Source of the DNA: Acidobacteriota bacterium
GTDB taxonomy: Bacteria; Acidobacteriota; Terriglobia; Bryobacterales; Bryobacteraceae
Assembly: GCA_016201205.1 (NCBI GenBank)
Contig: JACQDF010000291.1
Coordinates: forward strand, 1-36,734
Length of the DNA stretch: 36,734 nucleotides
Direction of reading: 5' to 3'
Every line of letters begins with the position of its first letter. Positions within the stretch are counted from its first letter, which is position 1. This document shows positions 1 through 18,332 of the stretch, piece by piece. The notes under the pieces are model-generated. The model searched no databases, was not told the DNA's origin, and saw only the letters and a program-made list of their open reading frames with translations. The position numbers were made by a program, and so were the translations under genes.

Positions 1-2577
1 CGCCAGATGGCTTCCGAACAGGCTCTCGGCCAGCCGGGTGGCGTCGATGTACAGATTCCGCCCATGCCGCGTGTGGGTTTTCGCCGCATCGAGCAGCCGC
101 TCCGGGCCCGCCAGAACACGCTTGCGGATGTGCTCGCCGGTAGGCACAAGACTCGTGTTCAGCACGGCCACTGTTTTCTCCGGATCGGCCGTCTTCAGAT
201 TCTCGGCACTGGCTGCGCCGATCAGGTCAAAGCCGAGGATCAGATCGGCATTGGCGATGTTGGTGCGCGCTGACGCCTCGACCTGCCGGTCGCTGATCAG
301 CAGGTGCGACACGACGGCGCCGCCTTTCTGCGCCAGGCCGGTCTGATCCAGTGTCACCACATGACGGCCATCGATCAGCGCCGCTGTCGCCAGCAGCGCA
401 TTGATGGTCACGACGCCTGTTCCGCCGATCCCCGGCATCAGAATCCTGTAACCGCCACCCGGTTTGACCACGTCGCGCGGCGGCGGCACTTCCGTCTGGG
501 GCAATGGCGGGAGCTTGCGCCTTTTCAGCCCGGTTCCCTCGGCGATGTGCACCGTCAGGAACGACGGGCAATCGCCCAGTGCGCAGGAGTAATCCTTGTT
601 GCACGAAGACTGGTGAATGCGAATTTTCTGCCCCAGCTCGGTGGCCACCGGATGAAGGCTCATGCAATTGGATTGCCGGATGCAATCGCCGCACCCTTCG
701 CACACTTCTTCATGAATCACAAGACGCCGGGTGGGCTCTTTGTACTTGCCGCGTGTGCGAAGCCGGCGCTTTTCCGCGGCGCATTCCTGATCGTAGATGA
801 GCACCGTAACGCCGCGAATTTTCTCCAGTTCCGCCAGCGCCCGCTCGATGGCGGCGCGGTCGCGCACCTCGGCATTGGCAGCCATCCGCGCGCCGTCCAT
901 GTATTTGGCCACGTCGTCGGTAAGGACGATTGTCTTGCTGACGCCCTCGGCCTCCAGCTTCCGCGTAAGATCCGGAATCGGAATGGCGCCGGTTACATCC
1001 TGACCGCCGGTCATCGCCACGTGGCCGTTATAGAGAATCTTGAACGTGATGTTCACGCCCGCCGCGATCGCGCTTTCGATGGCCAGCGATCCGGAGTGAA
1101 AATACGTCCCATCGCCCATGTTCTGGAACAGGTGCCGGCGCTCGACAAACGGCGCCATGCCGATCCACGGAACCCCTTCCGCGCCCATGTGCGTGCAGAA
1201 CAGATAGCCTCGGTTGGAATCGGCCAGCATGGCCGACATGCCGTGACAGCCGATGCCGCCCCCGGCCACCTGCCCGTCGAGCAGCAGCGTCGAGCGGTTG
1301 TGCGGGCAGCCGGAGCAAAAATTCGGAGGCCGCACCGGAAGCGGCTCCTTCGGGCGCAGGGCAACGGCTTCGATCCGCGCCAGCCGCCTCCGCAAGGATT
1401 CGCCGGGCTCCGTATTCCCGAGACTGCCGGCCACCACGCGCGCCAGCATATCCGGGTCCAGCTCATAGGCGGACGGCAGCAGCGGTGCGCAGGATTCGTC
1501 TTCCTTGCCGATGATCACAGGATGCTCGCGCAGGTTGTAGAGTGCGTCACGAAGCTGCATTTCGAGGAAGCTGCGCTTCTCCTCGATCACCAGAATCTTG
1601 CGCAACCCGGTCGCGAACTCTCGCGCAAAGTGCGGCTCGACGGGGAATGTCATACCGAACTTCGCGATGCGAATCCCCATCGTTCCCAGATCCGCCATCC
1701 CGATGCCCAAATCGTGCAGCGCCTGCATCAGGTCGTAGTAATACTTGCCTGACGTGGCGATGCCGAGCGACGCGTTCTCGCGTGCGCCGAACCAGCGGTT
1801 GAGCCCGTTCGCTCGAGCAAAATCTTTCGCCGCTTCCAGACGGCGCCGGTTCACTTCCGGTTCCATGGCATTGGTGAACGGAATCAGCAGGCGCGGGTCC
1901 GTCTTCTTCTGATAGCCCTCGGGAATCACGATCGGCGGCCGCTCTGGCGCAACCTCGACCGTGCCGCCGCCGTCGCAGGTTTGCGTCAGCAGCTTCATCC
2001 CGCACCAGGCGCCGGTGAAGCGTGAGAGGGCGATTCCCGCGAGGCCGAAATCGAGGATCTCCTGCGTGTTTCCCGGAAACAGCACCGGGATGGCGGCGTT
2101 CATCAGGCTGAAATCGCTCTGGTGCGGAATCGAAGAGCTCTTGCACGGATGATCGTCCCCAGCCAGGACCAGTGCGCCGCAGCGGCCCGGCGAGCCGGCC
2201 AGATTCGCATGCCGGAAAATGTCGCCCGAGCGATCCACGCCCGGCCCCTTGCCGTACCAGATGCCGACCACGCCCTCAAACTTCGATTTGCCCATCACCT
2301 GGTAGATCTGGCTCCCGAAGATCGCCGTCGCCGCCAGGTCTTCGTTCACGCCGGGCCAGAAGCGAATATCCAGCTCATCAAGCAGCCCCTTCGCCCGCGC
2401 CAGCGCCAGGTCGTAGCCGCCCAGCGGCGAGCCTTCATAGCCGGAGATGAACGCGCCGGTCTTCCAGCCCGCCCGCCGGTCGCGCCGCATCTGGTCCATC
2501 GGCAGCCGCACCAGCGCCTGGATGCCGCTGAGATAGACGGTCCCGGACTCGACCGTGTATTTGTCGGTGAGCTGCAT
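1..2577 (-). CDS. Fused indolepyruvate ferredoxin oxidoreductase (alpha plus gamma regions), 3'-truncated by the window edge
   Basis: This thiamine-diphosphate enzyme family oxidises arylpyruvates from aromatic amino acids to arylacetyl-CoA. The frame is open for 859 codons to position 1 with no stop, so the C-terminus is missing. Visible landmarks are NFCSGCPHN near residue 419, the ThDP-binding GDG at 488-490 followed by a YNGHVAMTGGQ segment, and ferredoxin-type cysteines CEGCGDC from residue 626 followed by SNC. A gamma-type domain (GIGGTGVVTINALL) follows from about residue 690. Fused proteins of this family are usually about 1150 residues, so roughly 300 are outside the window. The ATG shares its first base with the upstream isomerase TGA, suggesting translational coupling. 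The fused form is typical of aerobes. I infer the aromatic substrate from the family only. Confidence 0.9.
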   Translation of the reverse strand, partial: MQLTDKYTVESGTVYLSGIQALVRLPMDQMRRDRRAGWKTGAFISGYEGSPLGGYDLALARAKGLLDELDIRFWPGVNEDLAATAIFGSQIYQVMGKSKFEGVVGIWYGKGPGVDRSGDIFRHANLAGSPGRCGALVLAGDDHPCKSSSIPHQSDFSLMNAAIPVLFPGNTQEILDFGLAGIALSRFTGAWCGMKLLTQTCDGGGTVEVAPERPPIVIPEGYQKKTDPRLLIPFTNAMEPEVNRRRLEAAKDFARANGLNRWFGARENASLGIATSGKYYYDLMQALHDLGIGMADLGTMGIRIAKFGMTFPVEPHFAREFATGLRKILVIEEKRSFLEMQLRDALYNLREHPVIIGKEDESCAPLLPSAYELDPDMLARVVAGSLGNTEPGESLRRRLARIEAVALRPKEPLPVRPPNFCSGCPHNRSTLLLDGQVAGGGIGCHGMSAMLADSNRGYLFCTHMGAEGVPWIGMAPFVERRHLFQNMGDGTYFHSGSLAIESAIAAGVNITFKILYNGHVAMTGGQDVTGAIPIPDLTRKLEAEGVSKTIVLTDDVAKYMDGARMAANAEVRDRAAIERALAELEKIRGVTVLIYDQECAAEKRRLRTRGKYKEPTRRLVIHEEVCEGCGDCIRQSNCMSLHPVATELGQKIRIHQSSCNKDYSCALGDCPSFLTVHIAEGTGLKRRKLPPLPQTEVPPPRDVVKPGGGYRILMPGIGGTGVVTINALLATAALIDGRHVVTLDQTGLAQKGGAVVSHLLISDRQVEASARTNIANADLILGFDLIGAASAENLKTADPEKTVAVLNTSLVPTGEHIRKRVLAGPERLLDAAKTHTRHGRNLYIDATRLAESLFGSHLA

Positions 2578-17582: not shown

Positions 17583-18254
17583 TTATTTAATGACAGGCGC
17601 TAACTCTTGACCGATAGCCGCCTCTAGCTCCACTGGCTTGAAGCCGCCGGGTCCGGGCTTGCTCTTGTAGGCGATGCGGCCGTTCTTGTCAACCAGATAC
17701 AGCCGGTCGGGCCAGGCCGTGTAGGCCAGTTCCACCTTGTTGTCCATGCCATCCAACAGAGTGGGGAACTTGATGTCCAGCTTGCGAGCGCAGCTTGTGG
17801 CGTGTTCCTCTTTCTGCTCCATCGTCTTGGCGTTCTCCAGGAGTATGCCTTCCTTGATATTTCTTGGCACCTGCCAGCCATCGGTCGCGTGGGCTTCGCG
17901 GATGTAGACCAGCAAGAACTCGACGCGGTCCTTGTACTTTTCAAACATCGCGTTGAGGGTCCCAACCTGGGACCGGAAGGGCGGTCAGGTGTAGCTGGCG
18001 AAAACAAGCGCCACGGGCTTCTTGCCACGGAAGGACGAGAGCTGGACTTGCTGCTCGGAGTGCAGCCTCTGCAATCGAAAATCGGGAGCCCCGTCACCCG
18101 GGTTGAGCTTGCCCTCTCCCCTTCCCATTTTCGCTTCGTATTCTTTGGCTTTCGCTCTCATCTCCGCACTCATGGGCGGGGCAGGGCCCTTTGGCTGTTG
18201 TGCCAGGGCGATCCCGAAAGCCAGAACGGGCGCCAGCAGTTGCATCGACTTCAT
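17583..18254 (-). CDS. Deiodinase-family selenoprotein with in-frame TGA (selenocysteine)
   Basis: This thioredoxin-fold protein of 223 residues is read through a TGA at 17985-17987 as selenocysteine 90. The flanks FASYT-U-PPFRSQ match the active site of iodothyronine deiodinases. Downstream are the family landmarks EAHATDGW (120-127), DRLYLVDKNGRIAYK and GPGGFKP, all in the same frame as the N-terminal half. The N-terminus is a signal peptide (MKSMQLLAPVLAFGIALAQQ) followed by GDGAPDFRL at about 53-61. AGGAG lies 6 bases before the ATG at 18254; an in-frame ATG at 18278 is less good. A 7-bp hairpin with a GGU loop starts just after the TGA. Bacterial members are not known to process thyroid hormone; a redox or dehalogenation role is possible. 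Ordinary gene calling would split it in two. Confidence 0.9.
17958..17974 (-). promoter_or_regulatory. Candidate bacterial SECIS hairpin for Sec insertion
   Basis: On the mRNA strand, GGTCCCA and TGGGACC form a perfect 7-bp stem closing a GGT loop. The loop begins after 17 bases following the TGA at 17987-17985. Bacterial SECIS elements are hairpins inside the coding region just after the UGA, with guanine in the apical loop about 16-37 bases downstream, bound by SelB. This hairpin meets the position, stem and loop-G criteria. It overlaps codons for the conserved region after Sec. SelB binding cannot be shown from sequence. Confidence 0.75.
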
Positions 18255-18332
18255 CGGCTTCTCCTCTCGTAATATCATCTTATATGTGTTAGGGGTGGGA
18301 GGGGGCGGCGCAACGGTTTTCCGCTACACTCG

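What the first reader, a model, noticed from the sequence alone, without database searches (positions are those of the whole stretch)
17583..18254. Hidden selenoprotein: deiodinase-family gene read through an in-frame TGA
Two open frames in the same phase, split only by TGA at 17985-17987, together make one complete deiodinase-like protein. The TGA falls exactly where iodothyronine deiodinases have catalytic selenocysteine (FASYT-U-PPFRSQ), and the landmarks EAHATDGW and DRLYLVDKNGRIAYK follow. With a signal peptide and a strong ribosome-binding site, the gene looks functional. Standard annotation would give two fragments or a pseudogene. Its substrate in a bacterium is unknown; halogenated compounds or peroxides are candidates.
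Basis: partly seen in the sequence, partly recalled or inferred. Interest (0 to 1): 0.9.

Follow-up and report, generated by a model that had tools for sequence, protein, structure and literature searches.

The report
Bacterial deiodinase-like selenoprotein gene
This soil-bacterium gene has an internal TGA that is almost certainly read as selenocysteine, giving an exported relative of the enzymes that activate and inactivate thyroid hormone in animals; the kind of protein is already known in bacteria, and what this one acts on is unknown.

Summary
It is almost certainly a genuine selenoprotein gene. (1) The joined product matches Pfam T4_deiodinase at E 8e-31; its best solved matches, by sequence and fold, are mouse Dio2 and Dio3. 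(2) The genome has tRNA-Sec (TCA), selB, and a selD with its own in-frame TGA; selA was not found in this draft but passes its cut-off in 124 of 150 family genomes. (3) TGA is there in 80 of 80 fetched relatives and 29 of 29 family loci extracted. (4) A GGU-loop hairpin follows, with compensatory changes; its four inner pairs form in 104 of 110 Sec loci, against 31 expected from synonymous recoding and 0 of 12 Cys forms. (5) Sequence after the TGA is under purifying selection. Most animal catalytic residues are kept at the same spacing; the second relay His, proximal Cys and hormone clamp are not. Substrate unknown: organohalide or peroxide. Such bacterial proteins have been in print since 2005, so this is a new member of a known kind. 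A link to animal enzymes is hinted at, not established.

The parts
17583..18254 (-). Deiodinase-family selenoprotein gene (223 aa, Sec at residue 90 from this ATG); alternative upstream ATG at 18278
   Evidence: PF00837 E 8.4e-31
17985..17987 (-). In-frame TGA, read as selenocysteine; catalytic position
   Evidence: TGA in 80 of 80 fetched relatives and in 30 of 30 loci extracted from the family scan, the window's own included
17958..17974 (-). bSECIS-type hairpin, 7 bp stem GGUCCCA/UGGGACC with apical loop GGU (loop 17967-17965)
   Evidence: fold -11.8 kcal/mol, z -2.64 for a 21-nt stretch but -0.48 for the 38 nt from UGA; covariation; Cys-form and synonymous-recoding controls
18261..18265 (-). 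Shine-Dalgarno-like AGGAG, six bases before the ATG
   Evidence: read
18201..18254 (-). Probable signal peptide MKSMQLLAPVLAFGIALA, AxA-type end before QQ (cleavage inferred; no signal-peptide predictor was run)
   Evidence: sequence; Kyte-Doolittle peak 2.0 over 15 residues; helix 15-26 of P0001 in the model
17586..18080 (-). Thioredoxin/peroxiredoxin-like deiodinase domain (P0001 residues 67 to the end)
   Evidence: AlphaFold2 model, pLDDT mostly above 90 here; Foldseek best hits Dio2 and Dio3

Best explanation
It is a genuine selenoprotein gene. The UGA is decoded as selenocysteine by tRNA-Sec and SelB, guided by a GGU-loop hairpin that begins at the 14th base counted from the U of UGA (supported by comparison; not shown by experiment). 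The product is probably exported (inferred from the N-terminus) and has the deiodinase version of the thioredoxin/peroxiredoxin fold (predicted model). Mechanism (inferred): the selenolate, helped by Ser(U-3) and Thr(U-1), attacks an electrophilic atom of a small substrate; Tyr(+27), Glu(+30), His(+32) and Trp(+37) at the deiodinase-specific loop position the substrate and relay a proton; the oxidised Se is then reduced by thiols, perhaps through the conserved Cys163. It works like a deiodinase at the chemical step, but residues proposed to grip the thyroid-hormone carboxylate are absent, so the substrate is probably something else. My guesses: reductive dehalogenation of a natural organohalogen 0.45, reduction of a (lipid) hydroperoxide 0.40, other redox roles 0.15. 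The confidence below is for selenoprotein plus deiodinase family plus selenolate-based reductase, not for a substrate.
For: Family: PF00837 8.4e-31; PDB sequence hits mouse Dio3 5.2e-19 and Dio2 8.1e-16; Foldseek ranks 1 and 2 Dio2 7.9e-13 and Dio3 8.0e-12 on a model of mean pLDDT 89.1. Machinery: tRNA-Sec 77 bits, ARAGORN SeC(tca); selB; selD with in-frame TGA. Conserved TGA. Hairpin, 62 distinct sequences: 84.6% of 434 cells paired against 69.7% in shuffles, covariation 0.353 against 0.102, 0 of 500 shuffles as high on either; four inner pairs in 104 of 110 Sec loci, 31 expected by synonymous recoding, 0 of 12 Cys forms. Selection. Catalytic residues: S95, T97, U98, Y125, E128, H130 in 73 of 73 rows and W135 in 72 of 73, at the offsets of Dio2 Ser127, Thr129, Sec130, Tyr157, Glu160, His162, Trp167 (PMC11592359, passages).
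Against: selA was not found over its cut-off in this 94.3%-complete, 2.05%-contaminated draft. The 38-nt fold from UGA is not better than shuffles (z -0.48; 55 of 200 shuffles fold as well). On one search's count of pairs with a change on both sides 17 of 500 shuffles reach the observed 6, and the +1 slid structure has more both-side cells (51 against 42), though less pairing (56.2%) and covariation (0.289). The two outer stem pairs form in only 36 and 35 of 62 sequences. The position aligned with Dio2's second relay His (His182) is Pro or Ala in 71 of 73 rows, and that of the Dio3 Arg275 / Dio2 Lys241 clamp is Pro or Ala in 71 of 73 (aligned through). No row of 73 has the DIO1/DIO3 proximal Cys at U-2 (66 Tyr). 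No conserved gene neighbour points to a substrate. One relative, G009, has GGA (Gly) at this codon.
Confidence: 0.9

Rival explanations
1. Same selenoprotein, but functionally a periplasmic peroxidase (peroxiredoxin-like), not a dehalogenase: the selenolate reduces hydroperoxides and the deiodinase loop only shapes the pocket. (This lies inside the best explanation; it competes with the dehalogenase substrate guess.)
For: AhpC-TSA and Redoxin also match over their cut-offs (47.7 and 39.7 bits); AhpE 1-Cys peroxiredoxins and ResA-type reductases are in the Foldseek list. Ser at U-3 and the invariant Arg192 before the LYLVD strand sit where peroxiredoxins have Thr/Ser and a catalytic Arg (recalled, not tested). 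Cys forms exist.
Against: The deiodinase model scores far better than the peroxiredoxin models, and the deiodinase-specific EAHxxDxW stretch is nearly invariant.
Confidence: 0.4
2. The TGA is a true stop: the gene is a pseudogene, or makes only a short N-terminal peptide.
For: Under table 11 the frame is two ORFs. Broken copies exist among relatives: 3'-only copies in L018 of this genome and in L147, and a copy in the same-genus genome G143 (L148) in which only a C-terminal part matches.
Against: TGA, never TAA or TAG, in 52 of 84 family match rows and TGA in 80 of 80 fetched relatives; purifying selection after the TGA; covarying hairpin; Sec machinery in the genome.
Confidence: 0.02
3. The TGA is an assembly or sequencing error in a Cys gene (TGC or TGT).
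For: The Cys forms have TGC or TGT here.
Against: The same TGA is in many separate assemblies, including a named strain, Acidicapsa dinghuensis 4GSKX (L135); the four inner hairpin pairs form in 104 of 110 TGA loci and in 0 of 12 Cys forms.
Confidence: 0.01

Closest known systems
Bacterial deiodinase-like selenoproteins (Sargasso Sea 2005, PMC1088965; GOS 2008, PMC2398784; listed in reviews PMC9312934 and PMC13188914; passages only of all four)
   Same: PF00837, in-frame UGA, bacterial SECIS, Cys homologues also exist
   Different: The two reviews list the motif as UxxC while the 2008 survey lists none; here it is U-PP-F with Phe, not Cys, at +3 in 73 of 73 rows. The 2005 and 2008 surveys are marine; the word Acidobacteri occurs 0 times in the main texts of the two reviews. 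The EF-hand-fused form (PMC9402790, passages) resembles L182 by eye, a very long branch in my tree.
Vertebrate iodothyronine deiodinases DIO1-3 (solved cores 4tr3, 4tr4, 9h48)
   Same: Fold (predicted model), T-U-PPF motif, Ser/Thr/Sec/Tyr/Glu/His/Trp at the same offsets, GP near the C-terminus
   Different: No second relay His, no proximal Cys, no Arg/Lys clamp; probable signal peptide where animal enzymes have a transmembrane region (PMC11592359); hairpin inside the coding region, where eukaryotic SECIS elements are in the 3' UTR (recalled); thyroid hormone not expected in the host
NCBIfam NF038285 deiodinase_rel (deiodinase family protein)
   Same: 195.5 bits, E 1.7e-57 over the catalytic domain
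   Different: Below that model's 250-bit cut-off; the model is 347 positions long and this protein matches positions 178-340 only
AhpE-type 1-Cys peroxiredoxins / ResA-type reductases
   Same: Overall thioredoxin-like fold
   Different: Weaker matches than Dio2/Dio3; they lack the deiodinase-specific insertion (described as Dio-specific in PMC11592359, passages; not tested here)

Membership tests
Sec-decoding (selenoprotein) gene | In-frame UGA at a conserved redox position with homologues carrying Sec or Cys there | tested here: met
   TGA in 80 of 80 fetched relatives; of 14 stop-free family rows fetched out of 32, 11 have Cys, 1 Gly, and 2 lack the position
Sec-decoding (selenoprotein) gene | bSECIS hairpin just downstream of UGA with a G in the apical loop | tested here: met
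   loop letters GGU in 59 of 62 distinct sequences
Sec-decoding (selenoprotein) gene | tRNA-Sec, SelB and SelD in the genome | tested here: met
Sec-decoding (selenoprotein) gene | SelA in the genome | tested here: inconclusive
   not over cut-off in this draft; over it in 124 of 150 family genomes, among them the 4 other same-genus genomes sampled
Sec-decoding (selenoprotein) gene | Selenium in the protein | not testable with these tools
   needs 75Se labelling or mass spectrometry
T4_deiodinase (PF00837) | Score over Pfam gathering cut-off | tested here: met
   107.5 bits against 27
Iodothyronine deiodinase | Catalytic Ser(U-3), Thr(U-1), Sec, Tyr(+27), Glu(+30), His(+32), Trp(+37) | tested here: met
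   73 of 73 rows, Trp 72 of 73; Dio2 residues from PMC11592359 (passages)
Iodothyronine deiodinase | Second relay His (Dio2 His182) | tested here: not met
   aligned position 150 is Pro or Ala in 71 of 73 rows, His in 1, Glu in 1
Iodothyronine deiodinase | Arg/Lys clamp for the hormone carboxylate (Dio3 Arg275, Dio2 Lys241) | tested here: not met
   aligned position 208 is Pro or Ala in 71 of 73 rows
Iodothyronine deiodinase | Deiodination of thyroid hormones | not testable with these tools
   needs enzyme assay
NF038285 deiodinase_rel | Score over NCBI cut-off (250 bits) | tested here: not met
   195.5 bits
Peroxiredoxin | TxxC-type active site (recalled) and peroxidase activity | tested here: inconclusive
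   Ser, not Thr, at U-3 in 73 of 73 rows; AhpC-TSA and Redoxin models match over their cut-offs; activity not testable

The most novel reading that the evidence does not exclude
Acidobacteriota carry a widespread, exported Sec-dependent reductive dehalogenase for natural organohalogens, and animal thyroid-hormone deiodinases are descended from, or sister to, the GS(F/C)TUPPF subgroup of this bacterial family.
Probability: 0.2. Interest if true: 0.85.

Novelty: new member of a known kind. Interest (0 to 1): 0.5.

Why it matters
Standard gene calling treats the TGA as a stop (one search shows two ORFs; no annotation of this genome was seen), so a family with matches in 66 of 150 sampled genomes (any PF00837 match: Sec, Cys or partial) may be under-annotated. 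It offers bacterial relatives, including Sec forms, Cys forms and two with the GSCTUPPF motif of DIO1/DIO3 (L161, L165), in which to ask what deiodinase chemistry did before thyroid hormone. The hairpin/protein trade-off is unusually clear: residues after Sec switch between R-S-Q-V-G and R-R-E-V-P while the RNA stem flips C-G pairs to G-C and stays paired.

Tried and rejected
Pseudogene and sequencing error were considered and rejected (see rivals). A conserved operon was sought by clustering ORFs of at least 110 codons around 78 relatives plus the window (many loci are cut by contig ends, and only clusters in 8 or more loci were printed): apart from the gene's own two halves, no printed cluster lay within 2.5 kb of the gene in more than 7 of 79 loci, so context gives no substrate. 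A plasmid search found matches in only two records; the phage collection was not searched. A nested origin of animal deiodinases was tested: the two mouse rows group with seven Acidobacteriota rows at 94/85, not a starred branch, and holding the 49 other bacterial rows of the inner clade together without the mouse rows is not rejected (p-AU 0.524; that tree even scored 0.83 log units higher), so I do not claim it. Literature searches for an acidobacterial deiodinase selenoprotein (an open-licence PubMed Central library only) listed nothing on point; one search listed a Dictyostelium dechlorinase (PMC3205185; listing and start of abstract seen) as a possible functional parallel, and the 12 of 438 papers shown did not help. 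Passages only were seen of PMC1088965, PMC13188914, PMC9312934, PMC11592359, PMC9141512, PMC2398784, PMC1794560 and PMC9402790.

Alignment A3 used 72 of the 80 fetched loci plus the window: L071 and L109 were not matched by my pattern (both have TGA), and L097, L102, L107, L108, L113 and L121 were left out by hand. L143, one of the 11 family Cys rows, was left out of the tree. The 80 loci are the best 80 of 209.

Full report
WHAT IS THERE. The span 17583-18254 holds, on the minus strand, one frame of 223 codons plus stop, broken only by TGA at 17987-17985. AGGAG lies six bases before ATG 18254, so I take that as the start (Sec = residue 90); numbering below follows P0001, which begins at the in-frame ATG 18278 and is 8 higher (Sec = 98).

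FAMILY. Read with Sec, the protein matches T4_deiodinase (PF00837) at 8.4e-31, with AhpC-TSA and Redoxin weaker but over their cut-offs. The part after the TGA alone scores 79.5 bits against the 27-bit cut-off; the part before it alone matches no Pfam family at E 0.001. The closest solved sequences are mouse Dio3 (5.2e-19) and Dio2 (8.1e-16). An AlphaFold2 model from 73 aligned sequences has mean pLDDT 89.1, and Foldseek places Dio2 and Dio3 first and second of 1554 matches with E up to 10, followed by thioredoxin-like reductases of the ResA type and AhpE peroxiredoxins. A second structural aligner was not available.

IS THE TGA SELENOCYSTEINE? Machinery: the genome (7.0 Mb, 392 contigs, 94.3% complete, 2.05% contaminated) has a tRNA-Sec with anticodon TCA (77 bits; ARAGORN agrees; the only other hit over the cut-off, 48.6 bits, is a tRNA-Ser by ARAGORN), selB and selD with an in-frame TGA of its own. 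selA is not found (best hit 37.3 bits, cut-off 267.9), but 124 of 150 genomes sampled from the family pass, among them the four other members of the genus in that sample; a gap in the draft is the simplest reading. selB passes in 129 of 150.

CONSERVATION. In the family, 66 of 150 genomes have a PF00837 match; of 84 match rows, 52 contain exactly one stop, which is TGA, and 32 contain none. All 30 loci extracted from that scan (29 relatives and the window's own) have U-PP-F at this position. A protein search of one genome per bacterial and archaeal species gave 209 relatives, of which the best 80 were kept; all 80 have TGA (78 by pattern; L071 and L109 by eye). Three are labelled Planctomycetia or Planctomycetota; the other 77 carry labels of Acidobacteria or groups that I place in that phylum. 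The search patterns were a Cys-lettered motif and a motif away from the codon, so I see no bias towards TGA, though the best-80 cut favours close relatives. Of the 32 stop-free rows I fetched 14: 11 have Cys, 1 has Gly (G009, GGA), and 2 are partial copies without the position. In L138 and L139 the Cys form is the C-terminal domain of a 474- or 549-aa protein; in L139 the rest matches TPR-repeat models. I call the others TPR forms from their long frames only. In the tree 11 such Cys rows (10 from the family, 1 from another family of the phylum) nest inside a 19-row clade with the window (100/97), which suggests Sec-to-Cys replacement. Across the phylum 30 of 297 genomes match.

THE HAIRPIN. 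From position 14 to 30, counted from the U of UGA, the window RNA forms a 7-bp stem with loop GGU. Folding energy alone is weak evidence: z -0.48 for 38 nt, -2.64 for 21 nt. Comparison is strong: over 62 distinct sequences 84.6% of cells pair (shuffles 69.7%) and the covariation score is 0.353 against 0.102, 0 of 500 shuffles reaching either; 6 of 7 pairs have double changes, which 17 of 500 shuffles reach; slid structures score 0.038 to 0.289 in covariation, although the +1 slide has more both-side cells (51 against 42). The two outer pairs form in 36 and 35 of 62. The four inner pairs all form in 104 of 110 Sec loci; recoding the same proteins with the family's own codons predicts 31; in Cys forms it is 0 of 12. 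In 16 Sec genes from the phylum scan the same four pairs form in 8; L161 and L165 instead show AAGAUC-GGU-GAUCUU, the same loop one codon further on (by eye).

SELECTION. Against eight relatives, pN after the TGA is 0.20-0.30 while pS is 0.60-0.84 (ratios 0.29-0.50); in the 50 codons before the TGA the ratios are 0.34-0.50.

HOW IT WORKS. Ser95, Thr97, Sec98, Tyr125, Glu128 and His130 are invariant in 73 of 73 rows and Trp135 in 72 of 73, at the spacing of the Dio2 residues linked to catalysis and proton relay in PMC11592359 (passages). Missing are the second relay His, the Arg/Lys clamp and the proximal Cys; roles of the proximal Cys and relay residues in DIO1 are in PMC9141512 (passages). 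Cys163 (72 of 73 rows) is a candidate resolving Cys, inferred only; L156-L161 and L165 lack it (by eye). The N-terminus looks like a signal peptide; many relatives have a more hydrophobic N-terminal segment, as a membrane anchor would. I infer a selenolate-based reductase outside the cytoplasm with deiodinase-like chemistry and a different, unknown substrate.

WHAT IS KNOWN. Bacterial deiodinase-like selenoproteins with Cys homologues were described in 2005 (passages), and a 2026 review lists them among selenoproteins whose biological functions remain largely unknown (passages). I found no paper on an acidobacterial one, within an open-licence library only; a 2006 survey counts 4 selenoproteins of 3 families in Acidobacteria, and the word deiodinase does not occur in its text. 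So: new member of a known kind.

ANIMAL LINK. The mouse enzymes group with L156-L161 and L165 (94/85), two of which carry the GSCTUPPF motif, but the alternative is not rejected and sampling outside Acidobacteriota was minimal.

Noticed in passing
L018 1498-1855 (own genome, contig C93): A second, 97% identical copy of only the 3' part of the gene (from residue 109 on), without the Sec codon or the hairpin; differences from the window copy are mostly synonymous (pS 0.093, pN 0.007). A 3'-only copy starting near residue 111 is in L147 of another genome.
   Followed up: partly
L137 (G009), 992-1711 minus strand: One relative has GGA (Gly) instead of TGA at the Sec codon, with the rest of the gene open: natural change or sequence error.
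   Followed up: no
L138-L146, L149, L150, L169: Cys-type deiodinase domains (such as FGSYTCPNFR), fused to TPR repeats in L139; those in the tree nest inside the window-type Sec clade, and the four inner hairpin pairs form in 0 of 12.
   Followed up: partly
L161, L165: Acidobacteriota Sec forms with GSCTUPPF, i.e. with the proximal Cys of DIO1/DIO3.
   Followed up: partly
L024 1489 onward: selD of this genome is itself a selenoprotein gene (VKAAGUASKLSPKV).
   Followed up: partly
L182: Sec form FGCLTUPPF on a very long branch, behind a region that looks by eye like EF-hand repeats, as in a published domain fusion (PMC9402790, passages).
   Followed up: no
L148 (G143, same genus): Only the C-terminal part of the gene matches; a membrane-anchor-like N-terminus lies upstream in another frame, so this copy looks internally broken or misassembled.
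   Followed up: no
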